The notes beneath the pieces were generated by a model, which made no database searches, was not told where the DNA came from, and saw only the letters and a program-made list of their open reading frames with translations. From assembly GCF_946886105.1 (NCBI RefSeq), contig NZ_CAMPHV010000024.1:7524-71523 (forward strand): 64,000 nucleotides of DNA, given 5' to 3'. The stretch is from an uncultured Pseudomonas sp. GTDB lineage: Bacteria > Pseudomonadota > Gammaproteobacteria > Pseudomonadales > Pseudomonadaceae. A program made the translations under genes and the position numbers. Shown one piece after another: positions 37,715 through 62,692 of the stretch (position 1 is the stretch's first letter; every line of letters begins with the position of its first letter).

Positions 37715-37730
37715 AGCGTACCGCCACACC

Positions 37731-37760
37731 AAAAAACCCGGCCAGCGTGCCGGGTTTTTT
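37731..37760 (+). terminator. Intrinsic terminator of the pnt operon
   Basis: AAAAAACCCGGC – CAGCGT – GCCGGGTTTTTT: a G+C-rich stem with a six-base loop and flanking A/T tracts, directly after pntB. Confidence 0.93.
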
Positions 37761-37785
37761 GTGCGCCGCGAACAAGCATCGGCAC

Positions 37786-37875
37786 AGGTACAGTTCGCTG
37801 CGTTTGCCCGGAAAAACAGTCGTAAAACTGTAATGTCGGTCAAGAGTCCTAGCAGCGCAATTTAAAACTGTACCT
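37786..37875. promoter_or_regulatory. Cluster of ACTGTA half-sites upstream of DUF1127 gene
   Basis: AGGTACAGTT (37786-37795) is an exact inverted copy of AACTGTACCT (37866-37875), and a third AAAACTGTA stands at 37824-37832. The rest of the gene-free 37761-38117 is unusually AT-rich for the window and contains a possible TATGAT -10 element at 37966. It probably holds the DUF1127 promoter and a repressor/activator site; the regulator is not in the window. Confidence 0.4.
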
Positions 37876-42720: not shown

Positions 42721-43981
42721 GCTGTTCTTCCTCAATTGCAGAAGAAATAACCGCAGACGACGACCGCTCGATGGCGACTTGCGAGTCCAACCAGGCGCAG
42801 CCGACGAAGTCGGGCCGGCCGGTGTTGATGACATGGAATACCAGGGCGAAATCGCGCCATTCGTAGTTGGTATCCAGGTGCGAATCGAAGCGCGAAAGCG
42901 ACAGGGCGATCGAATAATTGCCCTTGCCCAACCGCGCCGGAAAGGCGAAGCGGTACACCACCCGCTCGCCGGCCCGCAGGTGTTCCAGGGCGCGGTCAAG
43001 CCGGTGGGTGTTGATGCCGTAGATCGCCTGGCCCATGCGGTCCTTGATCATGAAACCGAGTACCAGGCGGCTGATGTCGGCCTTGATCTCCACCGTCACC
43101 TGCAAGGTCACCTGGCTGCCGACCGAGACGACTTCGATGCGCTGCTCCTGCTCGTTGAGCAGCGCCACATCGCTGAAGCAGGCCTCGCCGGTGCCGGAGA
43201 TGGTGCGGATCTGCCCCCCGGGAAGGCGCTCCTGGCGCACCGTTTGTTGTTCCTTTTCCGCCAGCATGGCGCTGTAGAAATCCATCACCTCCTCAGGCGC
43301 GCCCTCCAGCGCCAACCGGCCGCCGGCCAGGAGGATGGCGCGGTCGCACAGCGACTGAATCGCCTGGCGGTCATGGGAGACGATCAGCAAGGTGGTGCCG
43401 GCTTTGCGGAACGCGCGGATGCGATCGAAGCTCTTGTGCTGGAAATAGGCGTCGCCGACCGACAAGGCTTCGTCGACGATCAATACGTCGGGGCGCCGCG
43501 CCGTCGCCACGCTGAACGCCAGGCGCATCTGCATGCCGCTGGAGTAGGTGCGCACGGGATGGTCGAGGTATTCGCCGATCTCGGCGAAGGCTTCGATCTC
43601 GGGCATCAGCGCATGCAGTTCCTCCATGCTCAAGCCCAGCAACTGCCCGGCCATAAAGACGTTCTGCCGGCCGCTGAAATCCGGGTGAAAACCCATGCCC
43701 AGCTCGAGCAGCGCGGCGACCCGGCCGTGAATCTCGATCTGCCCGGCGTTCGGTTGGGTGGTGCCGGTGATCATCTTCAGCAGCGTGCTCTTGCCCGCGC
43801 CGTTGACCCCGATGATGCCCAGCGCCTCGCCCGGCTCGACCGCGAAGGAGATGTCCTGCAATACCCAGGTCAGCTGGTGACGCGGTGCCGAGAAGGGAAT
43901 CATCCATTCGGCCAGGCGCGCCCAGCGTGTGGGGTACTGTTTATAAGCCTTACCCAGTTGGCTAACGCGAATACTGCCCAT
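42704..43981 (-). CDS. wzt: O-polysaccharide ABC transporter ATPase Wzt
   Basis: A 425-residue ATPase. Residues about 1-250 are the nucleotide-binding domain: GVNGAGKSTLLKMITG (Walker A), YSSGMQMRLAFSVATARR (signature) and DVLIVDEALSVGDAYF (Walker B). Residues about 280-420 form the Wzt C-terminal beta-sandwich that in other ABC-exported O-antigens recognises the capped non-reducing end. That capping requirement matters here because candidate methyltransferases are encoded at 52-56 kb. Its start shares a base with the wzm stop. Confidence 0.93.
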   Translation of the reverse strand: MGSIRVSQLGKAYKQYPTRWARLAEWMIPFSAPRHQLTWVLQDISFAVEPGEALGIIGVNGAGKSTLLKMITGTTQPNAGQIEIHGRVAALLELGMGFHPDFSGRQNVFMAGQLLGLSMEELHALMPEIEAFAEIGEYLDHPVRTYSSGMQMRLAFSVATARRPDVLIVDEALSVGDAYFQHKSFDRIRAFRKAGTTLLIVSHDRQAIQSLCDRAILLAGGRLALEGAPEEVMDFYSAMLAEKEQQTVRQERLPGGQIRTISGTGEACFSDVALLNEQEQRIEVVSVGSQVTLQVTVEIKADISRLVLGFMIKDRMGQAIYGINTHRLDRALEHLRAGERVVYRFAFPARLGKGNYSIALSLSRFDSHLDTNYEWRDFALVFHVINTGRPDFVGCAWLDSQVAIERSSSAVISSAIEEEQHALPD

Positions 43982-44778
43982 CAGAGTTCATCCACCATTT
44001 CGCCGGAGCGTTTGCGGAACAGGCGCATGCCCAACAGGCACAGCGCGGCGGCGAGCAAGGCGGTCGGCCAGAGCGCGTGCCAGTCCGGCCATTGGCCATA
44101 GACGAAGATGCCCTGGTACGCGGCGATCAACGGCGCCATGGGATTCAGGTCGATCAGCGGCTGGATGCCCTCGGGGAGAATCGACAGCGGGTAGACGATG
44201 GGGGTGAACCAGAACCAGAACTGCAGAAAGATCCCGACGAACTGCCCGACATCGCGGAAGAACACGTTGAGCACGCCGAGAATGATCCCCAGGCCGATGG
44301 AGAACGCGGTTTGCACGAGCAACACCGGGACGATCCCGAGCAGCGCCCAGCCGGGGAAGTTGTCCGTCACCAGGAGGAAACCGAGAAACAGCGCGAAGAT
44401 GATCGCGAAGTTCACCCCGGCATTCAGCACCACGATCAGCGGCAGACAGATCCGCGGGAAGGCGAGCTTCTTGATCAGATTGGCATGTTCGAGAAACACC
44501 GACTGGCTGCGCCCGATCACCTCGGCGAAAAAACCCCAGGCGAGAATCCCCGCGCACAGGTAGATGCCGTAGGCCAGGCTGTTGTCCACGCCGGGCAGGC
44601 GGGCTCTCATCAATTGGGAAAAGATCACCGTGTAGACCACGATCATCGATAACGGATTAAGGATCGTCCAGGTCGCGCCCAGCAAGGAATTGCGATAGCG
44701 CGTTTGAAACTCGCGCTTGACGCTGCCCAGAACGAATCCGCGGTAATTCCATACCGCACCAACCATACTCGCCGTCAC
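43981..44778 (-). CDS. wzm: O-polysaccharide ABC transporter permease Wzm
   Basis: A 265-residue ABC-2 type membrane permease with about six helices. I prefer GTG 44778 (MTASMVGAVWNYRGFVLGS) behind AGGA; a TTG at 44799 would add seven residues. The amphipathic VKREFQTRYRNSLLGATWTILNPLSMI segment and YGIYLCAGILAWGFFAEVI are typical of Wzm/RfbA exporters. With Wzt it flips the completed D-rhamnan across the inner membrane. The wbpW gene that usually lies between gmd and wzm is absent; only 138 non-coding bases separate them. Confidence 0.92.
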   Translation of the reverse strand: MTASMVGAVWNYRGFVLGSVKREFQTRYRNSLLGATWTILNPLSMIVVYTVIFSQLMRARLPGVDNSLAYGIYLCAGILAWGFFAEVIGRSQSVFLEHANLIKKLAFPRICLPLIVVLNAGVNFAIIFALFLGFLLVTDNFPGWALLGIVPVLLVQTAFSIGLGIILGVLNVFFRDVGQFVGIFLQFWFWFTPIVYPLSILPEGIQPLIDLNPMAPLIAAYQGIFVYGQWPDWHALWPTALLAAALCLLGMRLFRKRSGEMVDEL

Positions 44779-44916
44779 TGTTAAATCCTGCCGTATCAAT
44801 CGTCGAAATGAACGATGTCATCCGGGTAGGAAGCCGCTCTGTTACTACGAATATCAGCAGATCGATCGACCCGGGGTTCTCCAGGCGGCTCGGGGGCCGC
44901 CGGACGGGGCTATGGG

Positions 44917-46799
<1,883 letters not shown>

Positions 46800-46867
46800 G
46801 CGAATATCCATCCTCGCCAGGTTCGTCGGCATGCCCACGCTATGAGCGGAGACGTGTCGGAAAAGTT

Positions 46868-47278
46868 TCAGAGCAGGTAATCCAATGCCCAGGCGGTTGC
46901 CCCGCCGACCGCTAAGCCGGCGAATAATTCGAGGGGGCTGTGCCCCATTCGTTCACGCAATTTGCTGCAGCCGTCATCCAGGGCGAGGCGATTGAGCGCT
47001 TCGGCCTGACGGCCGATTTGCCGGCGCAGGCTGCCGGCATCCAGCATGACGATAAAGGCCAGGCTTAAAGCGACGCCGAATGCCGGGTGAGCGATGCCCT
47101 GTTTGAGAGCTATCAGACAGGCCATGCCGCCGACGATCGCGCTGTGATTGCTGGGCAAGCCGCCATAGCCGACTAGATCGAAGGCCAGGCGCCTGGCACG
47201 GATGCAATTGATGAGAAATTTACTGCTACCGGCCACCAGCCAGGCGGCGAAAGGCATCAACAGGTAGGACGGATCCAT
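46868..47278 (-). CDS. PAP2-like (DUF212, divergent PAP2) membrane protein, candidate DPPR phosphatase
   Basis: A 136-residue membrane protein, start ATG 47278 (MDPSYLLMPFAAWLVAGSS), 14 bases after the UbiA stop. Motifs GGLPSNHSAIVGGMACLIAL and the downstream RMGHSPLELFAGLAVG are the DUF212/divergent PAP2 signature, whose SxH and GHS-P elements resemble PAP2 phosphatase active sites. In mycobacteria a PAP2-type gene (Rv3807c) follows the UbiA-type enzyme Rv3806c and is proposed to remove the 5-phosphate from decaprenyl-phosphoryl-5-phosphoribose. The same pairing here suggests the same step; direct proof for DUF212 proteins is lacking. Confidence 0.75.
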   Translation of the reverse strand: MDPSYLLMPFAAWLVAGSSKFLINCIRARRLAFDLVGYGGLPSNHSAIVGGMACLIALKQGIAHPAFGVALSLAFIVMLDAGSLRRQIGRQAEALNRLALDDGCSKLRERMGHSPLELFAGLAVGGATAWALDYLL

Positions 47279-47292
47279 GCGCGCTCCCAGGG

Positions 47293-48171
47293 CTAGGTCG
47301 GCCAGAGCGCTATGGCGCAGGCCACGACCCAGAGCACGGCGGTCAACAGTAGCTGCCAGTCCGACAGCAGCGCATCGGTCGGCGATTCGCCTCCGCCTTT
47401 GGCCTCGACGACGAACCAGTAGCGGAACAAGCCGTACAGCACCAGGGGAATAGTGATGACCATTTCCGGGCGGGAGGTGATCACGAACAGGCTGTAGAAC
47501 AGCAATGCGCCTGTCGCCGCCATCTCGGCGTAACGATCGACCAGGCCCGGGGTGTAGTAGCGCAAGACCTCGCGGCTCAGTCTGCCGTTGGTGGCGAGTT
47601 CCTGCCGGCGCTTCACCGCGGCCAGGTACAGGGCCAGGCACAGGGTGGTCACGAACATCCAGGAGGAGACGGGGATCGTCAGAGCCATGGCGCCGGCGTA
47701 GACACGCAAGACGAAGCCAGTGGCAATGGTGAAGATATCGATCACCGGTTTGTGCTTGAGCACGAAGCTGTAGGCCAGATTGACCAGCAGATAGGCCCCG
47801 ATCACCAGAACCACCGCCGGCATGAAGAACCAGGCCGCCAGCAACACCGTATAGAGCGCCAGCAACAGCAGCAGCGCCACGGGAATGGGGACGGCCCCGG
47901 AAGCCAATGGCCGCGTATGCGACTTTTTCGGGTGGCGGCGGTCCTGCTCGATGTCGTGCAAGTCGTTGACGATGTACACCGCCGCCGAACCAAGACAGAA
48001 CAGCACGGTCGCAAGAAGTACCTTCTCTACGGCCTCGGGGTTGAGAAACTCACCCGCGAAGAGCAACGGGCCTAAAACGAACGCATTCTTCACCCACTGA
48101 CGCGGACGCATCAGGGCAATCATTCCTTTTAGCAGTTCCAGAGAGGAGCGCAGCTGTACGGTTGCATGCAT
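47293..48171 (-). CDS. UbiA-family polyprenyl-phosphate phosphoribosyltransferase (DPPR synthase-like)
   Basis: A 292-residue UbiA-fold enzyme with about eight or nine membrane helices, ATG 48171. It begins with the DPPR-synthase signature LMRPRQWVKNAFVLGPLLFAG, has the first Asp-rich motif NDLHDIEQDRRHPKK and a second conserved region YxAVKRRQEL. Together these distinguish the Rv3806c group from ubiquinone-type UbiA. The predicted reaction joins PRPP to a polyprenyl phosphate to give polyprenyl-phosphoryl-5-phosphoribose, the committed step to the D-arabinofuranose donor. It is divergent from the GtrA/DprE1/DprE2 genes with only 30 bases between start codons. Confidence 0.88.
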   Translation of the reverse strand: MHATVQLRSSLELLKGMIALMRPRQWVKNAFVLGPLLFAGEFLNPEAVEKVLLATVLFCLGSAAVYIVNDLHDIEQDRRHPKKSHTRPLASGAVPIPVALLLLLALYTVLLAAWFFMPAVVLVIGAYLLVNLAYSFVLKHKPVIDIFTIATGFVLRVYAGAMALTIPVSSWMFVTTLCLALYLAAVKRRQELATNGRLSREVLRYYTPGLVDRYAEMAATGALLFYSLFVITSRPEMVITIPLVLYGLFRYWFVVEAKGGGESPTDALLSDWQLLLTAVLWVVACAIALWPT

Positions 48172-48201
48172 GCGGTTGGCCTTTCATCCATATGGAATCC
48201 T

Positions 48202-48603
48202 ATGAAAGCGGCCACTAACTATGCACTTTTGGCGATGATCGCCACTTTTTGCAACATCGGCACACAAGATGTCGTCAGTCGTAACTACTGGGGTCCCTAC
48301 AGCCTTTCCTTTTCGATGCTGCTCGGCACCGCTGTCGGCTTGATGGTCAAGTACGTCTTGGATAAGCGCTTCATCTTCAAGTTCAAAGCGCAGAACATCG
48401 CCCACGACAGCAGGACCTTTCTGTTCTATGCGCTGATGGGCGTGGCTACCACGGTAATCTTCTGGGGTTTCGAACTGGCTTTCGCCTACCTGTTCGACGG
48501 CGCCGCGATGCGTTACCTGGGCGGCATCATCGGTCTGGCGATTGGCTACGTGGCCAAGTACGAGCTGGATAGGCGTTTCGTCTTCAATGCGAGGCCGGCC
48601 TGA
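48202..48603 (+). CDS. GtrA-family membrane protein
   Basis: A 133-residue protein with four hydrophobic helices, start ATG 48202 (MKAATNYALLAMIATFCNIG); an ATG at 48166 would overlap the divergent gene. Paired K-Y-x-L-D-(K/R)-R-F-x-F motifs (VKYVLDKRFIFKF and AKYELDRRFVFN) are the GtrA signature. GtrA proteins flip or help translocate polyprenyl-linked sugars. In M. tuberculosis the gene before dprE1 (Rv3789) is also GtrA-like and implicated in handling decaprenyl-phosphoryl-arabinose. The stop codon shares a base with the DprE1-like start (TGATG). Confidence 0.88.
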   Translation: MKAATNYALLAMIATFCNIGTQDVVSRNYWGPYSLSFSMLLGTAVGLMVKYVLDKRFIFKFKAQNIAHDSRTFLFYALMGVATTVIFWGFELAFAYLFDGAAMRYLGGIIGLAIGYVAKYELDRRFVFNARPA

Positions 48604-49904
48604 TGCGCCTGCACGGCTGGGGCCGCTATCCGCAGGTCGAGGCGCAGCAGCTCGCGCCGCTGACGGTGAGTGCCAGCCGCGCGTTGATCGGCGCGCATCG
48701 GTCGCTGCTCGGTCGCGGCATGGGCCGCAGCTACGGCGACAGCGCCCTGCACGACTGCGTGCTGAACACCCGTTATTTGCAGCACCTGCTGGCGTTCGAT
48801 GCGAGCCACGGCTCTTTGCGCTGCCAAGCCGGCGCCACCCTCGATCAGCTCCTGGATTTTCTGGTGCCGCGCGGCTGGTTCCTGCCGGTGACGCCGGGCA
48901 CCCGTTTCGTCACGGTCGGCGGCGCGGTGGCCAGCGATGTGCACGGCAAGAATCATCACCTGCACGGCTGTTTCAGCGAATACGTCGACGAACTGCTGCT
49001 CGGCTTGGGCGATGGCAGCCTGCTGACCTGCTCGCGCAGCGAGCACGCCGAACTGTTCCACGCCACGTGCGGCGGCATGGGCCTGACCGGGTTGATTGTC
49101 GAAGTCGCTTTACGCTTGACGCCGATTCGCAGCGCCTACGTCAACCAGACCACGTTCAAGCTCGCCAACCTGGAAGACGCACTGCAAGGGTTCGAGAGCC
49201 AGCGGCAGCGGACCTATTCCGTGGCCTGGATCGATTGCCTGGCCCGCGGCGCCGAGCTGGGGCGTTCCTTGCTGATGGTCGGCGAGCATGCGCTGGACGG
49301 CCCATTGCAGCTGCCGCGCCAACGCCGCCTCGCCGTGCCCCTGGATATGCCCGCCGCCCTGCTCACTCACGCCTCGATGCAGGCGTTCAACAGCCTGTAT
49401 TACCGGCGCGTGCGTCAGGCCGAAGCCGAGCGGCGAGTCGACTACCGGCGCTTCTTTTATCCGCTCGACGGTATCGGGCAGTGGAACCGGCTGTATGGCA
49501 AGCGAGGCTTTTTGCAGTACCAGTTCGTGATCCCCAAAGCGGCGGGGTTGCAGGGTATGCAAGCGATCCTCAGGCGCATCGCCGACTCGCGCCGCGGCTC
49601 CTTTCTCGCCGTGCTCAAGGTCTTCGGCGAGCAGAACCGCAATCCGCTGTCGTTCCCCCTGGAAGGCTACAGCCTGGCCCTGGACTTCAAGTACGACAGC
49701 GGCTTACTGGCGCTGCTCGACGAGTTGGACGCCCGGGTGCTGGAGCACGGCGGGCGCATCTACCTGAGCAAGGATGCGCGCATGAGCGAACAGACCTTCA
49801 AGCGCAGCTACCCCGGCTGGGAACAGCTGCAAGCGGTCCGCGCGCGCTACGGCGCGCAGGGCAAATTCATCTCCCGACAAGCGCAACGCCTGGGGCTGGA
49901 ATAA
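48603..49904 (+). CDS. dprE1: DprE1-like FAD oxidoreductase (decaprenylphosphoryl-ribose 2'-oxidase)
   Basis: A 433-residue FAD-linked oxidase of the VAO fold. The N-terminal FAD domain has RGMGRSYGDSALHDCVLNT, VTPGTRFVTVGGAVASDVHGKNHHL and CGGMGLTGLIVEVAL. The C-terminal part ends in the same 75 residues that follow the inhibitor cysteine in M. tuberculosis DprE1. The predicted job is oxidation of the ribose 2'-hydroxyl of polyprenyl-phosphoryl-ribose, the first half of epimerisation to arabinose. The residue aligned with Cys387 is Ala359 (GYSLALDF against GWNICVDF) while the catalytic Lys418 is kept as Lys390. It is coupled to GtrA and to the DprE2-like gene. Confidence 0.9.
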   Translation: MRLHGWGRYPQVEAQQLAPLTVSASRALIGAHRSLLGRGMGRSYGDSALHDCVLNTRYLQHLLAFDASHGSLRCQAGATLDQLLDFLVPRGWFLPVTPGTRFVTVGGAVASDVHGKNHHLHGCFSEYVDELLLGLGDGSLLTCSRSEHAELFHATCGGMGLTGLIVEVALRLTPIRSAYVNQTTFKLANLEDALQGFESQRQRTYSVAWIDCLARGAELGRSLLMVGEHALDGPLQLPRQRRLAVPLDMPAALLTHASMQAFNSLYYRRVRQAEAERRVDYRRFFYPLDGIGQWNRLYGKRGFLQYQFVIPKAAGLQGMQAILRRIADSRRGSFLAVLKVFGEQNRNPLSFPLEGYSLALDFKYDSGLLALLDELDARVLEHGGRIYLSKDARMSEQTFKRSYPGWEQLQAVRARYGAQGKFISRQAQRLGLE

Positions 49905-49906
49905 TC

Positions 49907-50644
49907 ATGGGAAAAATCCTGATCATCGGCGCCACCTCGGCGATCGCCGAAGCCACCGCCCGACGCTTCGCCAGCCAGGGCGCCCACCTGTATTTGCTGG
50001 CGCGCAACCAGGAACGGCTGGCGACCCTGGCCCGCGATCTGAGCATCCGCGGCGCCCACAAAGTCGACTATGGCGCTTTCGATGCCACGGCGTTCGATCG
50101 CCACCAGTCGCTGCTGGATGAAGTCATCGCCGAGCTGGGCGGCCTCGACACCGTGCTCATCGCCTACGGCACCCTCAGCGGTCAGAAAGCCTGCGAGAAC
50201 AGCGTGGAGACGACGCTGCGCGAATTGACCGTCAACGCCCTGAGCATCATCGCCCTGCTGACGCTGCTGGCCACTTACTTCGAGACCCGGGGCAAAGGCT
50301 GCATCGCGGTGATCGGCTCGGTGGCGGGCGACCGCGGCCGCCAGTCGAATTATGTCTACGGCACCGCCAAGGGGGCGCTGGGCATCTTCCTGCAGGGGCT
50401 GCGCAATCGTCTGCATAAAAGCGGCGTGCAGGTGCTGACGATCAAGCCCGGCTTCGTCGATACGCCGATGACCGCGGAGCTGCCCAAGGGCCCGCTATGG
50501 GCCAGCGCGGAACAGGTCGCCATGGATATCGAGAAGGCCATCCTGAAGAAGCGCGACCAGCTCTACACGCCTGGGTACTGGCTGCCGATCATGGCGATCA
50601 TCAGACACACGCCGGAGCTCCTGTTCAAACGGCTTTCGCTTTGA
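49907..50644 (+). CDS. dprE2: DprE2-like short-chain reductase (decaprenylphosphoryl-keto-ribose reductase)
   Basis: A 245-residue classical SDR, start ATG 49907, two bases after dprE1. Cofactor loop ILIIGATSAIAEATARRF, catalytic Ser in IGSVAGDRGR and Y-x3-K in YVYGTAKGALGIFLQGLR, and KPGFVDTPMT all match the DprE2 group. It is predicted to reduce the 2'-keto intermediate to polyprenyl-phosphoryl-D-arabinofuranose with NAD(P)H, completing the DprE1/DprE2 epimerase. Order GtrA-DprE1-DprE2 is the mycobacterial one. Confidence 0.9.
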   Translation: MGKILIIGATSAIAEATARRFASQGAHLYLLARNQERLATLARDLSIRGAHKVDYGAFDATAFDRHQSLLDEVIAELGGLDTVLIAYGTLSGQKACENSVETTLRELTVNALSIIALLTLLATYFETRGKGCIAVIGSVAGDRGRQSNYVYGTAKGALGIFLQGLRNRLHKSGVQVLTIKPGFVDTPMTAELPKGPLWASAEQVAMDIEKAILKKRDQLYTPGYWLPIMAIIRHTPELLFKRLSL

Positions 50645-50679
50645 ATCCCACGCATGCCGATGCAGTCACCCAAGCCCCC

Positions 50680-52455
50680 ATGACCTCATCCTTCCCCGTG
50701 TCTGAAAAACTCCATAGCGGCTTCGCGCGCAACAGATACCGCTGGTTCGGCTGGCTGCTCGCGGCGCTGATCGTGACGGTGATCGCCACGCAGGAAACCT
50801 ACAACACCCGCAGCGACCCGCGCGGCACCCTGTTGGTCAGTCAGGCCCTTGCGCAGCACGGCACGCTCAAGCTCGACGCCTACGGCAAGCCCCTGCTGGA
50901 CAGTTATGGCTACGTTATCCAGCACAAGGCCGGCCACTTCTATCACTACTTCCCGCTGGGTACCGCCCTGCTCAGCAGTCCCTTCGTGGCTGTCGCCAAC
51001 GCCTTGGGTTTCGATATGACCCGGGACGAGCACCTTGTGCAGATGGCACTCACCGCACTGGCCGCCCTGCTGATCGCCTTCATCCTCTACCGCACCGCCA
51101 GGCTCTACCTGCCGAGAACGCCGAGCCTGTTGCTGACCGGCTTGTGCTGGTTCGGCAGCTCGCTCGCCAGCACGGTGGGAACCGCGCTGTGGTCGCACGA
51201 CTTCGCCTTGGTTTTTTCCAGTGCGGCGATCTTTCTGCTGCTTAGCCGGCCAGTGCAAACCCCGGGATCGGCAACCCAGGCAGTCGCTCAACAGTCCGTT
51301 AACCGCCGGCCGCGAGAACTGCTGAGACCGCTGCTGATCGGCGCCTGCCTGTTTCTCGCCTATCTCTGCCGGCCGACCCTGGCGCTGCTGGCGCCTTTCC
51401 TGCTGTTGTATTACTTCATTCAGGACAAGAAGTCCTCGCTGTTCGCCGCCCTCACCCTGGGCCTGCTGCTATTGGCTTTCATGGGCTGGAGCATCGGCGA
51501 ATTCGCGCAGATCCTGCCCGACTACTACTTGCCGAAACGCCTCGAAGGCGGCGAATTCGCCACGGCGCTATACGCCAACCTGCTCAGCCCGGCACGGGGC
51601 TTACTGATTTTTTCGCCCTTTATCGCGGTGTCCCTGCTGCTGACCCTGGTATTGGCCGTGCGCAACAAGGCCTTGCTGAGCTTGAGCCTGATCAGCCTGG
51701 CCTGGCCGACCGCCCACCTGCTCTCGATCAGCCAGTTCCCCCATTGGTGGGCTGGCTGGTCGTTCGGCCCGCGGTTGATGGTCGACGCCTTGCCCGGCCT
51801 CTATGTCGGCCTGTTCAGCGCCCTGGGGGCGTTACGGCAAAGGCGCAGGCTGGCCTACGCCGCGCTGCTCGGCAGCGGTCTGCTGGCGATCCATATCAAC
51901 ACCTACCAGGCGCTGTTCAACCCCTATGGCATGCGCTGGAATGTCGAACCGAACGTGGATCTATACCCCGAATACCTCTTCGATTGGCGCTACCCGCAAT
52001 TTCTGCACAACCAGGCCCGGCACGAGCGGCGATTGTCCGAGTTCTATAGCCAACAGCTGCCCAAAATCACGGGGCTGATCAACGTTTCTTACGATTCGGA
52101 GCAGGCGGCGTTCGATGGTTTTTATGAGCTGGAACCGGGCTTTCGTTGGAGCGAAGGGCACGCAGCCAAACTGCATCTCGTACTCGACGAACAAACCCAG
52201 CAGGCGCTACGGGGCGAGATCGAATTGCTGGCAGGCTTTCTCGACAAACAGAGGCTGCTGATCGGGCTGAATGGCGAACAGGTCTATTCCGGCAAGTTCT
52301 ACGGTGGCGAGCGTGAAATCCGTTTCCAGGTTCCTCCCGAACTGTTCCGCACGGGGCTCAACACCTTCACCTTCCAGCTGCCGGACGCGCATAAGCCCGC
52401 TTCCGCGGACCCGAGAATACTGGCGATGGCCTTCCGCAAACTCTCGATTCGCTAA
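50680..52455 (+). CDS. GT-C family membrane glycosyltransferase, candidate arabinofuranosyltransferase
   Basis: About 591 residues, with roughly ten membrane helices in the first ~420 followed by a periplasmic C-terminal domain (about 430-591) that may be a carbohydrate-binding module (VGxNGEQVYSGKF-like). ATG 50680 is the best in-frame start, though a TTG at 50641 overlaps the dprE2 stop; neither has a clear ribosome site. The first periplasmic loop carries ETYNTRSDPRGTLLVSQAL, an Asp-containing motif expected in GT-C enzymes, and FPHWWAGWSFGPRLMVDALP is a conserved later loop. In M. tuberculosis the gene after dprE2 is the GT-C arabinosyltransferase aftA, so transfer of D-Araf is a reasonable guess. 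The acceptor is unknown. Confidence 0.72.
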   Translation: MTSSFPVSEKLHSGFARNRYRWFGWLLAALIVTVIATQETYNTRSDPRGTLLVSQALAQHGTLKLDAYGKPLLDSYGYVIQHKAGHFYHYFPLGTALLSSPFVAVANALGFDMTRDEHLVQMALTALAALLIAFILYRTARLYLPRTPSLLLTGLCWFGSSLASTVGTALWSHDFALVFSSAAIFLLLSRPVQTPGSATQAVAQQSVNRRPRELLRPLLIGACLFLAYLCRPTLALLAPFLLLYYFIQDKKSSLFAALTLGLLLLAFMGWSIGEFAQILPDYYLPKRLEGGEFATALYANLLSPARGLLIFSPFIAVSLLLTLVLAVRNKALLSLSLISLAWPTAHLLSISQFPHWWAGWSFGPRLMVDALPGLYVGLFSALGALRQRRRLAYAALLGSGLLAIHINTYQALFNPYGMRWNVEPNVDLYPEYLFDWRYPQFLHNQARHERRLSEFYSQQLPKITGLINVSYDSEQAAFDGFYELEPGFRWSEGHAAKLHLVLDEQTQQALRGEIELLAGFLDKQRLLIGLNGEQVYSGKFYGGEREIRFQVPPELFRTGLNTFTFQLPDAHKPASADPRILAMAFRKLSIR

Positions 52456-52500: not shown

Positions 52501-53334
52501 CTACCGCCCTCTGAGCCAGTCGAAAGCCCTGACAAGCCCCCACAAGCGGCTGCCGTAGATAGCCGCCAAGCGTGCTTCGGCCCGTTCCATTCGCGCCGTG
52601 ACGCTGTCCAACTGCGCCCGCAAAGCCGCCGCATCTTCGCTGGGGTGGCTGAAGTGATGGCCCTCGCATAGCTGGAAATCATCCAAAAAATTCGGCGGCA
52701 TCGATAGCGGCACGAGCAGGTGGCGGTGTTCCTTGGCCACGTAATAGCGGTTGATGCCGTCGCAGAGGGCGAATTGGTAGTCGGCCGCGAGAATGATCGA
52801 GGCCCATTTCGGGTCGCTGTCGAATGCCGACTCGATCAGGATGATCCAGGGCCGCCAGACCTGGAAATCGAGCCCCCGGAGCACCTGTTCCTCGAAACCT
52901 TCGACATCGATCTTGAGAAAATGAATCGGCACTTCGCGGCCGATATGCTCGGCACAGATGCTGCTCAGCGTGCGGGTTTCGACCGTGCGATGAATGAAGT
53001 CGACACCCCCGGCTCTTTGCCGCTGCGCCACCTCCGCGCTCAGGGTCGAGAACCCGGTTTCCGGCGACTCGAAGAACTCCAGTTGGTCGGCCTTATCGCC
53101 CACCGCCAGGCACAGGTTTATATCCTCGGGGCGCTCGGCGCAGAGCGACTCATGGTAGTGCCGCACCGGTTCGATATTGATCCCGCGCCAGCCGCGTTCG
53201 TACAGCGAGCGGGTCACCGAATCGCGGGTCGGGTGGTTGGCGCCGATGTCGATATAAAAGCCCGGCCCGAACAGTCTCAGGGTGCGCCAGAGCATCACAT
53301 CTTCGAAATTTTGCGCATAGGAAATAAAGGGCAT
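52501..53334 (-). CDS. FkbM-family methyltransferase
   Basis: About 277 residues, start ATG 53334 (MPFISYAQNFEDVMLWRTL) with AGGA upstream; ATGs at 53343 and 53361 are possible. SAM-binding FYIDIGANHPTRDSVTRSLY and GINIEP, then IHFLKIDVEGFEEQVLRGLD, are the FkbM signature. A C-terminal coiled stretch (ALRAQLDSVTARMERAEARLAA) ends in SRLWGLVRAFDWLR, a tail seen on glycan-modifying enzymes. It probably O-methylates a sugar of the surface polysaccharide. It is last in the minus-strand operon and convergent with the GT-C gene. Confidence 0.87.
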   Translation of the reverse strand: MPFISYAQNFEDVMLWRTLRLFGPGFYIDIGANHPTRDSVTRSLYERGWRGINIEPVRHYHESLCAERPEDINLCLAVGDKADQLEFFESPETGFSTLSAEVAQRQRAGGVDFIHRTVETRTLSSICAEHIGREVPIHFLKIDVEGFEEQVLRGLDFQVWRPWIILIESAFDSDPKWASIILAADYQFALCDGINRYYVAKEHRHLLVPLSMPPNFLDDFQLCEGHHFSHPSEDAAALRAQLDSVTARMERAEARLAAIYGSRLWGLVRAFDWLRGR

Positions 53335-53376
53335 GGTCGGCATCCTGGCTGGCTGCGGCATGACTAAAAGCGGTGC

Positions 53377-54534
53377 TCATGGGCCAGGCACCGGCGCGTC
53401 CACCCGGACCTGCGGCGCCGGCTTGGCGAACAGGCGCTGAGCGATTTGCTTGCCGCGCTCGCGCAAGGGGCACTCGATCAGGCGGTAGTTGAGTTCGCTG
53501 AGCACGACGATCAGCACGGCCGCCGTGAGCACGAATGGGTAGAAGAACGAGTCGCCGAAATCGCCCTGCTGCGGGTACAGGCGGTAGTAGATTTCGCGGG
53601 TGAAGAAGAACGCCGGGATATGGATCAGGTAGATGGCGTAGGAGCGCGTGCCGAACCAGATCATCAAGCGTTTGAAGGCGCCATCCGGCCAAAGAAAATT
53701 CTGGTCGTAGGAGGCTATCCAGACCAGCGCCGCCGCCAGCAACGCGATCGCGCCGATGCGCATGGAGAACATTGTCAGTGGTTCGGAGCCAAGGGCGCAC
53801 AGGCACAGCAACAGCACCAGCAGCACCCCGACGCCGAGCCCGCGACGGGCGAGCAAGGCCGGTTGCAAACGGCGATAGGACGGTTGAGCGCTCCACAACG
53901 CGATCAGCACGCCGAGGGCCAGGGCGTCGGTGCGGAACATCATCAGCATCACCGAGCGCGGCGAAAACAGCTGCAGCGCCACCAGGCCGAACAGAACGTA
54001 GGGCAACCAACGGCGACTCAGCAGGATCAGCAAAGGAAACAGCAGGTAGAACTGCTCCTCCAGCGCCAGGCTCCAATAGACGAAGCTGCTGCCGTATTCC
54101 CACTGCATAAAGGCCTGGGCGAAGCGGATATTGGCGACCTGCAGCACAGCGGCGACGCTCGCCTCGAGGTTCGCTTCCAGGCTGCCGAAAACCCCGGAGC
54201 TGTTGAATGTCAGGGTGGCGAGCAGAATCACCAGCAGCCACAGCCAGGCCGACGGCAACAGACGCCAGGCGCGGCGCATCCAGAACGACAAGGTTTCGCG
54301 CCGCGCGGCGGCGCCATCGGGCTGAGCGTGCAGGCGCGGCACCAGGCTGCGGGCGATGACGAAGCCGGATACGGCGAAGAACAGGTCGACGCCGACCCAG
54401 CCGCCGAAATAGCTGTAGAAGCGCGTCAGCGCCGGGGTCGTCCAGCTAATCAGGTTCGATTGGGCGTGGTGCACCACCACCAATAACACGGCGAAGCCGC
54501 GCAACAGCTCGATATCTTCGATCGCGTTCTTCAT
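53377..54534 (-). CDS. Acyltransferase family 3 membrane protein (OafA/YrhL-like)
   Basis: A 385-residue protein with about ten membrane helices, start ATG 54534 behind GGAG. It begins IELLRGFAVLLVVVHHAQSN with the conserved catalytic-type His and continues with YFGGWVGVDLFFAVSGFVIA, SFWMRRAWRLLP and YWSLALEEQFYLLFPLL, all hallmark motifs of acyltransferase 3 (glycan O-acetylation). It lies between methyltransferase genes, 14 bases after the upstream one, so it probably O-acetylates the same polysaccharide. A comparable acyltransferase lies among the extra CPA genes beside rmd in P. aeruginosa. Confidence 0.9.
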   Translation of the reverse strand: MKNAIEDIELLRGFAVLLVVVHHAQSNLISWTTPALTRFYSYFGGWVGVDLFFAVSGFVIARSLVPRLHAQPDGAAARRETLSFWMRRAWRLLPSAWLWLLVILLATLTFNSSGVFGSLEANLEASVAAVLQVANIRFAQAFMQWEYGSSFVYWSLALEEQFYLLFPLLILLSRRWLPYVLFGLVALQLFSPRSVMLMMFRTDALALGVLIALWSAQPSYRRLQPALLARRGLGVGVLLVLLLCLCALGSEPLTMFSMRIGAIALLAAALVWIASYDQNFLWPDGAFKRLMIWFGTRSYAIYLIHIPAFFFTREIYYRLYPQQGDFGDSFFYPFVLTAAVLIVVLSELNYRLIECPLRERGKQIAQRLFAKPAPQVRVDAPVPGP

Positions 54535-54548
54535 GCGCATCGCTCCGC

Positions 54549-55406
54549 TCAGGGTTTGCGCGCGATAACCACTTGGCTTTTCGGCATCACCGCATCCAGG
54601 GCGTGCTTGATCCGCGCGCCGGCGGGCAGCGACAGCAGGGTCGTCCAGGTTTCCGACCAGCGCTCCAACAGCGGGTGCCAGGGCGGGTTGAGCGGCTGGT
54701 TTTCGCAGGCCCAATACAGCGCCCACCACACTGAGTGGTAGAAACCGTAGTGGCTGCTGCGCTCGACGATCAGCCCGGCGTCGCAAGCCAGCTGCTCCAG
54801 CTCGCCCTGCTTGAAGATGCGGATATGGTTGGGCTTCTCGAAGTAGGCCGGCGGCGCGATATGCCGCTGCACGCCCTCGATCACTTCACCGGGAACGCTG
54901 AGCAGAAACTGCGCGCCGGGTTTGCCGACGCGCACCAGCTCGGCCATGAATTGCCCGGGGTCGTCGACATGTTCGAGCACTTCCATGGCCACCACCTTGG
55001 TCACGCTGGCGTCGAGCAGCGGCAGCGGGTTGGCATCGGTGAGCAGGATCTGCACGCTGCGCGGCGCTTCCGCCTGCAAGCGTTGCCGGGCGGTTTTCAG
55101 GCTCTCGAGGTTGACGTCGGCGAGAATCATCTCGGCGCCGTGCTTGGCGCAAAATTTGGCATAGCCGCCGTCGCCACAACCGATATCCAGCACCCTATCT
55201 TCAGGGCCGACGGCGAAGCCTTCGAGCAACTCGCCGGTGTCGTTCTGGATCCAGCCGCTGACGTGGATATCGATCAAACCGATGTCGAGATCCAACTCTT
55301 GTTGTACGGGCAGCTGTTGCACAGGTGCCTGCGGTTCGGCTTCGGCGACCCGCTGCAGTTGCGATGAGAGTGGGGGCGCCATCAGACGCTTGAGCCGGTT
55401 CAGCAT
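54549..55406 (-). CDS. SAM-dependent methyltransferase, paralogue 1
   Basis: A 285-residue class I methyltransferase, start ATG 55406 (MLNRLKRLMAPPLSSQL). Motif I VLDIGCGDGGYAKF, motif II ILADVNLES and post-I VVAMEVLEHVDDPGQF are intact. The N-terminal IDIHVSGWIQNDTGELLEGF and the C-terminus MPKSQVVIARKP are shared with the next gene upstream (55453), so the two are tandem duplicates that have diverged. Its place in a glycosyltransferase operon suggests O-methylation of a sugar, perhaps chain-end capping. Confidence 0.88.
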   Translation of the reverse strand: MLNRLKRLMAPPLSSQLQRVAEAEPQAPVQQLPVQQELDLDIGLIDIHVSGWIQNDTGELLEGFAVGPEDRVLDIGCGDGGYAKFCAKHGAEMILADVNLESLKTARQRLQAEAPRSVQILLTDANPLPLLDASVTKVVAMEVLEHVDDPGQFMAELVRVGKPGAQFLLSVPGEVIEGVQRHIAPPAYFEKPNHIRIFKQGELEQLACDAGLIVERSSHYGFYHSVWWALYWACENQPLNPPWHPLLERWSETWTTLLSLPAGARIKHALDAVMPKSQVVIARKP

Positions 55407-55452
55407 GTGTGGATTCCCATGAGGGGTGGGGGGGTGAACATCGAAGGCGCGG

Positions 55453-56316
55453 TCAAACCGGTTTGCGCGCGACAATGACCTGACTCTTGGGCATCAGGCG
55501 ATCCAACTGCTGTTTGATCGGAGCGAATTCGGGTATCTGGATAAGCCGGTGCCACAGGTGCGCCCAGTCGTCGAGCAAGGGCGTGTAGGGCGGATGCACG
55601 ACGTCATGGGTTTCGCCCGAACGCTGCTCGCCGGAAGCCTTGAGCTGCGCCCAATAGATCAGCATCCACAGGCTCCAATAGAAGCCGTAGGACGAGCGCC
55701 GCTCGATCGCCAGCCCGGCGTCCTCGACCAGACGACCGAACGCCTCGCGCTCGAACACATGGATATGGTTGGGCGGCTGGAAGTACTGCGCGGGCGCGCA
55801 GCTTTCCTGGATCCGCTCGCCGACCGGGTCGGGCACCGCCAACAGATAGAGCGCGCCCGGGCGGCCGACCCGCACCAGTTCGCCGAGCACCGCTGCCGGG
55901 TCTTCGACATGCTCCAGCACTTCGAGGGCGATCACCCGGGTCGCGTAGGCATCGGCCAGTGGCAGCGGGCTGCTGTCCGAGACCAGGCCTTCGACGGCGC
56001 GGGCCGGGGTCCGCGTGAGTTTTTCGCGCAGCGCCTCGATCTTCTCCGCGACCACATCGCTGAACACCACGTGGGCGCCGCGGTTGGCGCTGAACAGGGT
56101 GGCGCCGCCAGCGCCGCAGCCGACATCCAGCACCACATCCTCGGCACCGATCGCGAAGCCGGAAAACAGCTCGTCGCTGGCATTGAGAAACCAGCCGCTC
56201 TGCACCGCATCGATCAAGCCGCAATCGCGCGAGTCGATATGCGCCGGCGCCGCCATCGTCGGGAGCGCTTGCGCCGGCTGGGTCAGGCGGTTCCACCAAT
56301 CGTTCACTCGCCTCAT
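55453..56316 (-). CDS. SAM-dependent methyltransferase, paralogue 2
   Basis: A 287-residue class I methyltransferase whose ATG 56316 overlaps the stop of the glycosyltransferase upstream (ATGA). Motif I VLDVGCGAGGATLF, post-I VIALEVLEHVEDPAAVL and the tail MPKSQVIVARKPV mirror paralogue 1. A longer open frame to 56769 lies inside the glycosyltransferase gene and is a shadow. It is probably a surface-polysaccharide O-methyltransferase. Retention of two copies suggests two positions or two acceptor sugars (inference). Confidence 0.88.
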   Translation of the reverse strand: MRRVNDWWNRLTQPAQALPTMAAPAHIDSRDCGLIDAVQSGWFLNASDELFSGFAIGAEDVVLDVGCGAGGATLFSANRGAHVVFSDVVAEKIEALREKLTRTPARAVEGLVSDSSPLPLADAYATRVIALEVLEHVEDPAAVLGELVRVGRPGALYLLAVPDPVGERIQESCAPAQYFQPPNHIHVFEREAFGRLVEDAGLAIERRSSYGFYWSLWMLIYWAQLKASGEQRSGETHDVVHPPYTPLLDDWAHLWHRLIQIPEFAPIKQQLDRLMPKSQVIVARKPV

Positions 56317-57872
56317 GCGTAAGCCCTCTGCTCGAACTGCAGGAACGTCGACAAGGTCTGCATCGCCGCGTCCCGCGAGCAATGCTCGCGCATGCGCACG
56401 ACGGCGTTGCGCGACAGCTGCCGGTAGCGTTCGGGCTCGTTCTTCACACAGTTGTATGCGGCCAGATAGGCGGCTTTCAGCGATGCCCAGTCGATCTGGT
56501 GGCGTTGCGTTCGATAAGCCAGGCGCGGGTCGTGGGACCAGGCGCTGGCGTCCAGCCAACTGTCGACGACGAACGCCACCTGCTCGTCGATATAGTCGGC
56601 CATGGCCGAGTGACACGGGGCGATCGCCGGTTTGCCGCAGGACAGGAACTCCATCAACGGCAGACACTGGCCTTCGCCATGGGAGGCGTTGACGACAAAG
56701 GCGCTGGCGCGGATCAGCGCATCGAACTCGCCGCCGTCGAGGTAGCCGTGCAACAGCACGATGCGGCATTTGAAACGCGGCATGCGCGCCATCCAGATCA
56801 GCATGTCGTGCATGGCGGAGAGGTATTCGTTGTGCCCGAGCTTGAACACCAGAGTGGCATCGGGGGTGTCGCGAAAGGCCGCGCAGAATGCGGTGAGCAT
56901 ATCGGCCCAGTTCTTACGGCCGTCATAAGGATTGAACAGCGCGGTGAATATCACCCCGGACAACCTCAGCTGCGAATCGCCCGGCAGCCACTCGGGCATC
57001 AGCGGCGTCACGCCCGTGGCGGGCGGTTGTTTGGGCTCCACGGTATTGCGCGGCTCCAGGCGCTTGGCCGGGTCCTCGCGCACCAGTTCGAACGCCGGTG
57101 TCGCCGGCAAGGTGTAAGGCAGAAAGGGCAAATGCCGGCCGAGCGCTTTGCGGTACCACTCACCCAGGTAACGCCGGGTAACGCGATAACGCGATTGCTG
57201 GCGGAGGGTAGATGGCGCTTCAGCGACCGGAGCCGGCTGCTGGCGCTTCGTCGCGTGTTCGTACTCGCGAATCGCCTGCACCACCCTGGCGGTGGCGTTC
57301 TGGCCGAAAATATAGGGGCTCAACGCCGGGTCGTGGCTATCGACCACCACCCCGGCGCGCACCTTCAGCAGCACCGGTTTAGCCAGCGGCAGCTTCATCG
57401 GCTGCCGCCTGATCGCCGCGAACTTGTCCCATACCGGCGAAGGAATCGCGACGATCGGATAGCCCGCGCCCATCTCTTTGCGCACCGCACTCACGGTCAT
57501 CTGCGAGTGGGTGATCGCCACCCCGCATTTGCCCAGGGTATAGCGCCAATCCTGGCGCAGATCGTCGAGCCAGTGTTCGTTGGGGATGCTGTCGAACTCC
57601 CAGGCGAACACCGGGATGGTCGGGCAACGCAAATCGACCGGGGTTTTCTGCGGCGGCGAAAAGGAGAAAAACACGCAGCGCAGGCCCAACGCACAGGCCT
57701 CGTCGTACAGGCGGTCGACTTCCAGTTCCGGCTGCTCGACGAATTGCACTTCGCCGAGTCCTTGCAGCACCGGTAAGAAGTCGCGCAGCACGAAGTAATA
57801 GCTGTATTCCGGCGCGCCCATGCTGGTGGCGATGTGCGCGGCGGTGACTTGCGAATAAACCAGAATCCTCAT
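56313..57872 (-). CDS. Glycosyltransferase, paralogue 1
   Basis: A 519-residue GT-B type enzyme, start ATG 57872 overlapping the stop of the upstream gene (ATGA). An N-terminal domain (YSQVTAAHIATSMGAPEYSY, FFSFSPPQKTPVDLRCPTIP, VFAWEFDSIP) and a C-terminal GT4-like domain (FNPYDGRKNWADMLTAFCAA, VNASHGEGQCLPLMEFLSCG) are separated by a low-complexity Pro/Ala linker (about residues 215-280). SHGEGQCLPLMEFL carries the E-x7-E donor-site pattern. It is homologous to the next gene upstream along its whole length. Confidence 0.85.
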   Translation of the reverse strand: MRILVYSQVTAAHIATSMGAPEYSYYFVLRDFLPVLQGLGEVQFVEQPELEVDRLYDEACALGLRCVFFSFSPPQKTPVDLRCPTIPVFAWEFDSIPNEHWLDDLRQDWRYTLGKCGVAITHSQMTVSAVRKEMGAGYPIVAIPSPVWDKFAAIRRQPMKLPLAKPVLLKVRAGVVVDSHDPALSPYIFGQNATARVVQAIREYEHATKRQQPAPVAEAPSTLRQQSRYRVTRRYLGEWYRKALGRHLPFLPYTLPATPAFELVREDPAKRLEPRNTVEPKQPPATGVTPLMPEWLPGDSQLRLSGVIFTALFNPYDGRKNWADMLTAFCAAFRDTPDATLVFKLGHNEYLSAMHDMLIWMARMPRFKCRIVLLHGYLDGGEFDALIRASAFVVNASHGEGQCLPLMEFLSCGKPAIAPCHSAMADYIDEQVAFVVDSWLDASAWSHDPRLAYRTQRHQIDWASLKAAYLAAYNCVKNEPERYRQLSRNAVVRMREHCSRDAAMQTLSTFLQFEQRAYA

Positions 57873-59356: not shown

Positions 59357-59389
59357 CTTCCGAGATACCCCCCTCTCCGAACCGAGCAA

Positions 59390-60151: not shown

Positions 60152-60359
60152 TTAGGTGAGGCAGCCAACGCAAGGGCAATGTTGCCAAGCCCCATATTCG
60201 CCACGCGGCGGTTTCCGCTACGCTAATGCCTGGCAGTCCGGTTCCGCGCGAGCCTGCGCCGGCAGGTGGCAGTTCGTTGCTTGAGCGAAGGAACCGAGAC
60301 GCCCGAGTACCATCCAAGCCGACACCCCTCGACACTTTCCAGCTCTATCGGAGTTCACC

Positions 60360-60680
60360 ATGCATCGCTCCTTGCTCTGCGCCGCAGTTGCCCTCGCGTT
60401 GTTCGCCGGCAGTGCCCAGGCGCAAACCCTGGTCGCCACCAGTAACATCATCATCCGCGCGGTGGATCGCAGCCTCGACTTCACCTCGGATACCACCACC
60501 TCTATCCGCGATTCGAAAGTGGTCCTGGCGGCGCGCGACGATGCCGCCAGTTTCGTCGCCAGCCAAGGCGCTATCCGCGGTGCGCAGCTGGAAGCGGCGC
60601 TCGGCGAGATCCGCAACCGCCTGCCCGAAGCCCAGGGCGTTTCCGACCTGGCCTTGGCCGAAGCCATACTGACGCTGTGA
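60360..60680 (+). CDS. DUF2388 periplasmic small protein, copy 2
   Basis: A 106-residue secreted protein, ATG 60360. The signal peptide is MHRSLLCAAVALALFAGSAQA; the mature domain has TTTSIRDSKVVLAARDDAASFVAS and RGAQLEAALGEIRNRLP. The next gene begins at a GTG inside its stop codon, so it is co-translated with the DUF4105 protein. Function unknown; the association suggests a shared envelope role. Confidence 0.88.
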   Translation: MHRSLLCAAVALALFAGSAQAQTLVATSNIIIRAVDRSLDFTSDTTTSIRDSKVVLAARDDAASFVASQGAIRGAQLEAALGEIRNRLPEAQGVSDLALAEAILTL

Positions 60681-62629: not shown

Positions 62630-62692
62630 CCCGGATGAAATCCGGGGAAATCGCTGCCAACCCAACACCGCCCCGGATTGCATCCGGGCTAC
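62626..62692. repeat. REP-like palindrome between DUF4105 and GFA genes
   Basis: GTAGCCCGGATG…ATCCGGGG at the left pairs with CCCCGGAT…CATCCGGGCTAC at the right. It fills the gap between two convergent genes and could act as a bidirectional terminator-like stem. Its first bases overlap the DUF4105 stop codon. Confidence 0.75.

What the first reader, a model, noticed from the sequence alone, without database searches (positions are those of the whole stretch)
46868..52455. D-arabinofuranose donor pathway with mycobacterial gene order next to a D-rhamnan cluster
Plus strand: GtrA – DprE1-like – DprE2-like – GT-C glycosyltransferase, the order of M. tuberculosis Rv3789-Rv3792. Minus strand: UbiA-type phosphoribosyltransferase – PAP2-like, the order of Rv3806c-Rv3807c. 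Together these cover polyprenyl-phosphoribose synthesis, dephosphorylation, 2'-epimerisation, possible flipping and transfer. A comparable D-Araf pathway has been reported for pilin glycosylation in the P. aeruginosa PA7/Pa5196 group, but here a dedicated GT-C is inside the locus and no pilin gene is nearby, so the acceptor may be a different glycan.
Basis: partly seen in the sequence, partly recalled or inferred. Interest (0 to 1): 0.8.

Follow-up and report, generated by a model that had tools for sequence, protein, structure and literature searches.

The report
Arabinose-adding genes beside LPS rhamnan cluster
An uncultured Pseudomonas-like bacterium carries a known set of genes for making D-arabinofuranose, a sugar best known from the tuberculosis bacterium's wall, set inside the genes for its rhamnose LPS chain, which suggests that the sugar decorates that chain and not only the pili, where its use is known.

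Summary
46868-52455 encodes a DUF212 phosphatase and a UbiA phosphoribosyltransferase (minus strand), then GtrA, DprE1-like, DprE2-like and a GT-C (plus strand), beside rmd-gmd-wzm-wzt. The block looks like an insertion between two D-rhamnan (CPA) operons. Among 398 Pseudomonadaceae genomes, 54 have DprE1; all 7 with this GT-C (one copy broken) and all 8 with the pilin transferase TfpW are among them, but 7 of the 10 genomes with the close DprE1 clade show no TfpW. The transferase gene after dprE2 is exchanged between genomes for an unrelated one, and a carbohydrate-binding-like C-terminal domain recurs on three unrelated membrane cores in rhamnan loci. Best reading: a D-Araf donor pathway whose local GT-C arabinosylates the D-rhamnan in the periplasm; TfpW/pilin is a second user in some strains. 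The donor pathway is known; the rhamnan acceptor is an untested inference. New member of a known kind.

The parts
46868..47278 (-). DUF212 (divergent PAP2) phosphatase, proposed to remove the 5-phosphate of polyprenyl-phosphoribose-5-P; PSNHS motif
   Evidence: PF02681 109 bits; motif at residue 42; 68% identical over 124 of 136 residues to the PA7 gene at the same place
47293..48171 (-). UbiA-type polyprenyl-phosphate phosphoribosyltransferase (PRPP user)
   Evidence: NF008978 over cut-off; best solved relative 8j8j decaprenyl-phosphate phosphoribosyltransferase, E 8.6e-40; NDxxDxxxD motif
48166..48603 (+). GtrA-family small membrane protein, proposed lipid-sugar flippase; start probably near 48202
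   Evidence: NF037976 175 bits; overlap of starts seen
48603..49904 (+). DprE1-like FAD oxidase of polyprenyl-phosphoryl-ribose
   Evidence: NF053785 401 bits; M. tuberculosis DprE1 structures E about 2e-80; residues aligned to Y60, H132, K134, Q334, Q336, K367 and K418 kept; S228, Y314, N364 and C387 differ (V, F, A, A)
49907..50644 (+). DprE2-like short-chain reductase, YxxxK motif
   Evidence: 73% identical to PA7
50680..52455 (+). GT-C glycosyltransferase (type A), proposed D-arabinofuranosyltransferase; residues about 9-430 are the GT-C core
52063..52455 (+). C-terminal beta-sandwich of the GT-C (residues about 462-591), CBM6/35/36-like, proposed acceptor binding
45885..46838 (-). Rmd-like GDP-D-rhamnose reductase
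   Evidence: Pfam; 62% identical to the PA7 gene at the same place; the name Rmd rests on position and context
44917..45888 (-). Gmd, GDP-mannose 4,6-dehydratase
   Evidence: TIGR01472 410 bits, just under its cut-off of 415
43981..44799 (-). Wzm, O-polysaccharide ABC transporter permease
   Evidence: PF01061; 68% identical to PA7
42704..43981 (-). Wzt, ABC transporter ATPase with C-terminal polysaccharide-binding domain
   Evidence: PF14524 Wzt_C 128 bits
39066..42999 (-). Three glycosyltransferases (39066-40211, 40212-41345, 41329-42999), WbpZ/Y/X-like by position
   Evidence: Glycos_transf_1; names by position and recall only
52501..59389 (-). Second block: FkbM methyltransferase, acyltransferase, two methyltransferases and two further proteins. 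The acyltransferase, methyltransferases and two further proteins match the block on the far side of the insertion in PA7 and in genomes without the D-Araf genes (taken as PA5455-5459-like by position, not by sequence); the FkbM gene was matched in L002 only

Best explanation
The block is a D-arabinofuranose donor and transfer cassette inserted between the two operons for the D-rhamnan O-polysaccharide (common polysaccharide antigen, CPA). [quoted passage not shown] the DUF212 protein removes the 5-phosphate; DprE1 and DprE2 invert C2 to give polyprenyl-phosphoryl-D-Araf; GtrA helps it across the membrane; the GT-C takes D-Araf from the lipid in the periplasm and adds it to the exported D-rhamnan, held by the GT-C's C-terminal carbohydrate-binding-like domain. 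Shown here: gene content, order, families, GT-C fold, insertion site, co-occurrence. Known from PA7/Pa5196 and mycobacteria: the donor pathway. Inferred: that GtrA flips, that this GT-C uses D-Araf, and that D-rhamnan is its acceptor.
For: (1) Orthology and synteny with PA7, whose cluster is reported to make D-Araf (PMC12369383, passages). (2) Seven DprE1 residues kept; the best solved relative of UbiA is the phosphoribosyltransferase. (3) GT-C fold with matches to ArnT, AftB, AftD and AftA plus a CBM-like domain. (4) All 7 genomes with this GT-C among 398 also have DprE1, which 54 of 398 have (hypergeometric 6e-7, not corrected for kinship), including G006 and G032, where the GT-C sits beside rmd and a donor block lies elsewhere. 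(5) Insertion site: in G017 and G019, which have no DprE1 match, rmd is followed within about 210 bp by the second block; PMC5297154 (passages) describes CPA operons PA5447-54 and PA5455-59. (6) 9 of 10 close-clade DprE1 loci lie beside rmd/gmd; the tenth (G053) lies beside pilA and a tfpW-like gene, and that genome has no match to the type A or type B transferase. (7) The transferase after dprE2 is exchanged: types A and B mix within two supported clades of the DprE1 tree. (8) The window GT-C's C-terminal domain recurs on a type B protein (L134, E 6e-35) and on a third membrane core (L121, E 1.4e-28), both in rhamnan loci. (9) The PA7 TfpW query has no hit in 7 of the 10 close-clade genomes, nor in G002-G005 (G004 is in both sets).
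Against: No chemistry: no arabinose has been shown on any such rhamnan, and searches found no held paper joining D-Araf with CPA or A-band. The only reported D-Araf acceptor in Pseudomonas seen here is pilin. The type A genes of G007, G035 and G052 were not beside rhamnan genes in the stretches fetched; those of G035 and G052 carry the C-terminal domain all the same, so the domain is not confined to rhamnan loci; the G035 copy is broken (its two ends lie in different frames, the middle unmatched) and the G052 copy is split over two contig ends. L007, L013, L014 and L016 have the core without the domain, and the domain occurs in many non-Pseudomonas relatives whose acceptors are unknown. The DprE2 tree recovers only one of the two mixed clades, at lower support (84/85). 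Co-occurrence may partly reflect kinship and shared islands, and only 3 or 4 candidates per genome were scored. CBM-like folds are generic. G033 and G021 have GtrA-DprE1-DprE2 without UbiA or DUF212 in the 18 kb fetched. In C. youngae the CBM was dispensable for ribosylation (PMC11127046 section 10).
Confidence: 0.6

Rival explanations
1. The block serves only pilin glycosylation, as in Pa5196: D-Araf lipid is used by a TfpW encoded elsewhere, and the locus GT-C is an accessory or relic.
For: Pilin arabinosylation is the reported role in P. paraeruginosa (PMC12369383, PMC11841053; passages). All 8 TfpW genomes of 398 have DprE1. In G053 and G090 D-Araf genes sit beside pilA-tfpW-like genes. 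Some transferase copies are damaged: G035 type A, G356 type B with one in-frame TGA.
Against: TfpW is found in 3 of 10 close-clade genomes and in none of G002-G005, although G002, G004 and G005 have pilins. In the window, PA7 and L001-L004 the GT-C is a full-length open frame. It stands at the rhamnan locus in G006 and G032 although their donor genes lie elsewhere.
Confidence: 0.15
2. The GT-C uses the D-Araf lipid but modifies another envelope glycan (LPS core, lipid A, an exopolysaccharide) or another protein.
For: The best bacterial fold match is ArnT, a lipid A transferase. Type A relatives, some with the C-terminal domain, occur where no rhamnan genes were matched.
Against: Position between the two rhamnan operons in the window, PA7, L001-L003, G006 and G032, and the same C-terminal domain on two other membrane cores at rhamnan loci.
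Confidence: 0.2
3. The lipid sugar is not D-Araf: the epimerase pair acts on another lipid-linked sugar, or ribofuranose itself is transferred.
For: DprE1 and DprE2 score under their NCBIfam cut-offs. PMC11127046 reports Ribf and Xylf side chains on rhamnose-containing O antigens with related three-component systems.
Against: 64% and 73% identity to the PA7 pair, in a cluster reported to make D-Araf; seven DprE1 residues kept.
Confidence: 0.05

Closest known systems
P. paraeruginosa PA7/Pa5196 D-Araf locus (PSPA7_6245-6251, RGP80)
   Same: Same six genes, order and insertion site beside the D-rhamnan genes, GT-C included; 51-74% identity
   Different: PA7 has a gene taken as wbpW (by position) between gmd and wzm and an acyltransferase after the GT-C; PA7 has a pilA with the gene taken as tfpW beside it elsewhere in the genome, not testable for the window organism
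Three-component pentofuranose systems of Citrobacter youngae O1/O2 (GT136; PMC11127046)
   Same: UbiA-type phosphoribosyltransferase, flippase and GT-C with a C-terminal CBM, next to an ABC-exported O polysaccharide that contains D-rhamnose
   Different: Here a separate DUF212 phosphatase instead of a fused HAD domain, GtrA instead of MATE, and DprE1/DprE2 for the C2 inversion
Mycobacterial arabinan donor pathway (roles of Rv3806c, Rv3807c, DprE1/E2 and Rv3789 in PMC11127046; gene order Rv3789-Rv3792 recalled)
   Same: Same proposed reaction set and local gene order
   Different: Phosphatase family DUF212, and the GT-C has no sequence match to any solved chain, AftA included, only the fold
TfpW, pilin D-Araf transferase
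   Same: Multi-TM transferase thought to use the same lipid donor
   Different: No blastp match to the window GT-C at E up to 1e-3; encoded next to pilA

Membership tests
Pseudomonas D-Araf locus (PSPA7_6245-6251 type) | UbiA, phosphatase, GtrA, DprE1, DprE2 and GT-C in one block beside rmd-gmd | tested here: met
   Synteny with L012 = PA7
Pseudomonas D-Araf locus (PSPA7_6245-6251 type) | TfpW and group IV pilin as user | not testable with these tools
   No whole genome held; no prepilin motif in the window; TfpW found in 3 of 10 close-clade genomes
DprE1 | Family model score and catalytic residues | tested here: inconclusive
   401 bits vs cut-off 500 but next family 57; residues aligned to Y60, H132, K134, Q334, Q336, K367, K418 kept, S228, Y314, N364, C387 not (their roles are recalled)
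DprE2 | NF053786 over cut-off | tested here: not met
   186.5 vs 250 bits; best model is generic SDR NF005489. The works-like claim rests on pairing with DprE1 and 73% identity to PA7
Decaprenyl-phosphate phosphoribosyltransferase (Rv3806c type) | NF008978 over cut-off | tested here: met
   224.8 vs 207 bits; 8j8j E 8.6e-40; two sister models, NF008977 and NF008976, stay under their cut-offs
PAP2 phosphatase proper (the family recalled for Rv3807c) | PF01569 over cut-off | tested here: not met
   18.9 vs 27.2 bits; it is DUF212 PF02681
GT-C superfamily | GT-C transmembrane fold with an acidic residue after TM1 | tested here: met
AftA (GT85) | Sequence relationship | tested here: inconclusive
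GT136 (C. youngae ORF12) | Sequence relationship to ORF12 | not tested
   ORF12 sequence was not at hand
Three-component pentofuranose system (as in C. youngae) | HAD phosphatase domain fused to the UbiA protein and MATE flippase | tested here: not met
   Separate DUF212 and GtrA
Three-component pentofuranose system (as in C. youngae) | Pentofuranose side chain on the neighbouring O polysaccharide | not testable with these tools
   Needs glycan chemistry

The most novel reading that the evidence does not exclude
Pseudomonads with this block make a D-rhamnan O-polysaccharide (A-band/CPA) decorated with D-arabinofuranose by an exchangeable periplasmic GT-C, different GT-C cassettes giving different arabinosyl serotypes; this is the older or commoner use of the D-Araf donor, and pilin arabinosylation by TfpW was added later. 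It would apply to P. paraeruginosa PA7 too.
Probability: 0.5. Interest if true: 0.7.

Novelty: new member of a known kind. Interest (0 to 1): 0.5.

Why it matters
The D-Araf pathway in Pseudomonas has been described as a pilin-glycosylation trait (PMC12369383, passages). The comparison points to a second, perhaps primary, acceptor in the LPS, and predicts that a conserved surface antigen that some bacteriocins bind (pyocin L1 binds CPA; PMC3916391, abstract start in search listings) varies by arabinosylation. It also names a simple test in an environmental isolate without a TfpW match and offers a non-mycobacterial setting in which to study DprE1/DprE2 and GtrA.

Tried and rejected
Not shown: an AftA-type transferase by sequence (no PDB sequence match at E up to 1). 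DUF212 also had no PDB sequence match at E up to 1.

Led nowhere or limited: no whole genome for the window; the key paper Harvey 2011 (PMC3151058) and PMC7820976 are not held, so Harvey 2011, Kus 2008 and Voisin 2007 are known here only from recall and from citations in PMC11127046, PMC12369383 and PMC11841053. Paper searches on D-Araf with Pseudomonas, O antigen, rhamnan, CPA or A-band: 18 of 18 papers listed; 25 of 59 listed; 15 of 34; 12 of 13; 1 of 1; 0 found; the listed titles and abstract starts showed no report of D-Araf on CPA, and the one hit, PMC13101481, was incidental (passages). PMC6372532 (one passage) adds only that outlier strains have the D-Araf pathway. A link between the C-terminal domain and rhamnan genes beyond Pseudomonas was looked for and is not clear; within Pseudomonas G035 and G052 are exceptions. 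Type B occurs in 6 of 398 genomes, but these are the six from which its alignment was made, so the count says only that no other genome of the 398 had a match. Type B and the third core were not modelled; that they are GT-C transferases is presumed from their many TM segments and place.
Full report
WHAT IS THERE. The block reads, left to right, DUF212 phosphatase (-), UbiA (-), GtrA (+), DprE1-like (+), DprE2-like (+), GT-C (+). GtrA and DprE1 overlap by one base, DprE1 and DprE2 are 2 bp apart, DprE2 and the GT-C 35 bp. To its left on the minus strand lie rmd, gmd, wzm, wzt and three glycosyltransferases; to its right a minus-strand block with an FkbM methyltransferase, an acyltransferase, two methyltransferases and two further proteins. 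DprE1 and DprE2 fall below their NCBIfam cut-offs, but DprE1 outscores every other FAD oxidase family by more than 340 bits, and the residues aligned to Tyr60, His132, Lys134, Gln334, Gln336, Lys367 and Lys418 of the M. tuberculosis enzyme are the same (numbering counted along the 461-residue chain, roles recalled). Ser228, Tyr314, Asn364 and Cys387 are Val, Phe, Ala and Ala here.

IT IS THE PA7 LOCUS. A scan of one genome for each of 84,980 species with the GT-C alignment returned 63 loci, among them P. aeruginosa PA7 (L012). Its order is wzt-wzm-(gene taken as wbpW)-gmd-rmd, DUF212-UbiA, GtrA-DprE1-DprE2-GT-C, then the second block, with identities to the window (best tblastn stretch) of 68, 74, 67, 64, 73 and 51% for the six genes. 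PMC12369383 (passages) states that PSPA7_6245-6251 of island RGP80 encode D-Araf synthesis for pilin glycosylation and occur in all P. paraeruginosa; PMC11127046 names PA7_6246 as the phosphatase. That the L012 block is this set is inferred from content. So neither the gene order nor the presence of a GT-C is new to this window.

WHERE IT SITS. Of 10 genomes of the PA7 genus without a DprE1 match that were searched for Rmd, 3 had one. In G017 and G019 rmd is followed after about 210 bp by the acyltransferase/methyltransferase block; G014 has a variant of this layout with a gap of about 400 bp. PMC5297154 (passages) describes the CPA genes of PAO1 as two operons, PA5447-54 and PA5455-59, with PA5455 and PA5456 essential for CPA. 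By position, the D-Araf block is an insertion between these two. In G006 and G032 a type A GT-C and an acyltransferase follow rmd, no donor gene was matched in those 20 kb or so, and a donor block of another DprE1 clade lies elsewhere in the genome. L004 has the block and the second block, but no rmd or gmd was matched in its 21.7 kb.

SURVEY. In 398 Pseudomonadaceae genomes (an even draw from a larger family; at most 4 candidates scored in each), DprE1 (E up to 1e-60) is in 54, of which 10 have a close copy (63-68%) and 44 only distant ones (42-49%). The window-type GT-C (type A; E up to 1e-40) is in 7, all within the 54; TfpW (E up to 1e-10) is in 8, all within the 54. Hypergeometric values are 6e-7 and 7e-8, not corrected for kinship. 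The TfpW result works as a positive control: a transferase reported to use this donor shows the same strict pattern. Of the 7 type A copies, that of G035 is broken and that of G052 is split over two contig ends. Of the 10 close-clade genomes, 3 have TfpW (G001 = PA7, G052, G053), 7 do not, and all 10 have a match to at least one of type A, type B or TfpW. In a separate search of 11 genomes, 4 had a match (PA7 and three others, two of these weak); G002-G005 (those of L001-L004, all with the full block) had none. L001, L002 and L004 are metagenome bins and may be incomplete, L003 (G004) is an isolate by its record title. Pilins were found in G002, G004 and G005, not in G003.

EXCHANGE OF THE TRANSFERASE. 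Nine of the 10 close-clade loci lie beside rmd/gmd. After dprE2 there, type A follows in G001 and G004 (and in L001, L002, L004 and the window); type B, a protein with no blastp match to the type A core, in G035, G052, G297, G033 and G356 (the last with one in-frame TGA), and as the second gene after dprE2 in G021; G007 has neither there, its type A lying elsewhere. The G297 protein (L134) is a distant type B member (29%). On the DprE1 tree types A and B mix within two supported clades, {L004 A, L134 B, L001 A, L002 A} at 99/96 and {L012 A, L136 B, L121 B, L122 B} at 98/96, so the transferase has probably been swapped; the DprE2 tree recovers the first only, at 84/85. The tenth locus (G053) sits beside pilA and a 35% tfpW relative, with a further multi-TM protein between that and UbiA, and the genome has no type A or type B match. 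G090, with a distant DprE1 clade, also has D-Araf genes beside pilA and a tfpW relative.

MECHANISM AND STATUS. Donor synthesis as in Best explanation is well founded by homology (about 0.93). That the GT-C uses D-Araf is likely (about 0.8, from linkage and co-occurrence). That D-rhamnan is the acceptor is the inference (about 0.6; lowered from 0.65). PMC11127046 (abstract, sections 5, 9, 10, the first part of 12, and passages read) proposes three-component systems for pentofuranose side chains, with DprE1/E2 homologs in those that contain Araf, so the concept is in print; searches showed no report of D-Araf on CPA among the papers listed, in a library that lacks most subscription journals and Harvey 2011.

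ORGANISM. The nearest proteins to the GT-C (P0001, P0002 and P0004; 96-99%) are from unnamed contigs and an 'uncultured Pseudomonas sp.'; no genome is held.

Noticed in passing
window 15607-22905 (-) and 11405-15610 (-): A 2432-aa protein with DUF7933 (8 stretches) and SdrD B-like (4 stretches) repeats, next to a 1401-aa frame with no Pfam match at E up to 1e-5: perhaps a large surface protein pair.
   Followed up: no
window 44799-44917: The gene taken as wbpW, present between gmd and wzm in PA7 and in most of the other rhamnan loci compared, is missing here; GDP-mannose supply may come from elsewhere.
   Followed up: partly
L005 (G006) and L162 (G032): Type A GT-C plus an acyltransferase at the rhamnan locus without donor genes nearby, the donor block lying elsewhere (L126, L129).
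   Followed up: yes
L163 (G035) 8711-10318: A broken type A GT-C copy away from rhamnan genes: its ends lie in different frames and the middle is unmatched, while an intact type B stands at the D-Araf block.
   Followed up: partly
L138 (G090) and L137 (G053): pilA, a tfpW relative, a further multi-TM protein and D-Araf donor genes side by side, in two different DprE1 clades; in L138 a 520-aa frame over the UbiA match carries a DLDGTL-type (HAD-like) stretch upstream of it.
   Followed up: partly
L144 (G144): Two UbiA-DprE1-DprE2 sets about 12 kb apart on one contig.
   Followed up: no
L121 (G033) and L122 (G021): GtrA-DprE1-DprE2 at the rhamnan locus without UbiA or DUF212 in the fetched 18 kb; G021 has a second, distant DprE1 locus with UbiA (L131).
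   Followed up: partly
window 36020-37843, 57869-59389, 60218-62683 (all -): Three long frames near the polysaccharide genes without a Pfam match.
   Followed up: no
window 25688-29022 (-): Hybrid 7TMR-DISM sensor kinase and AraC-type response regulator next to a TonB-dependent receptor (23326-25815).
   Followed up: no
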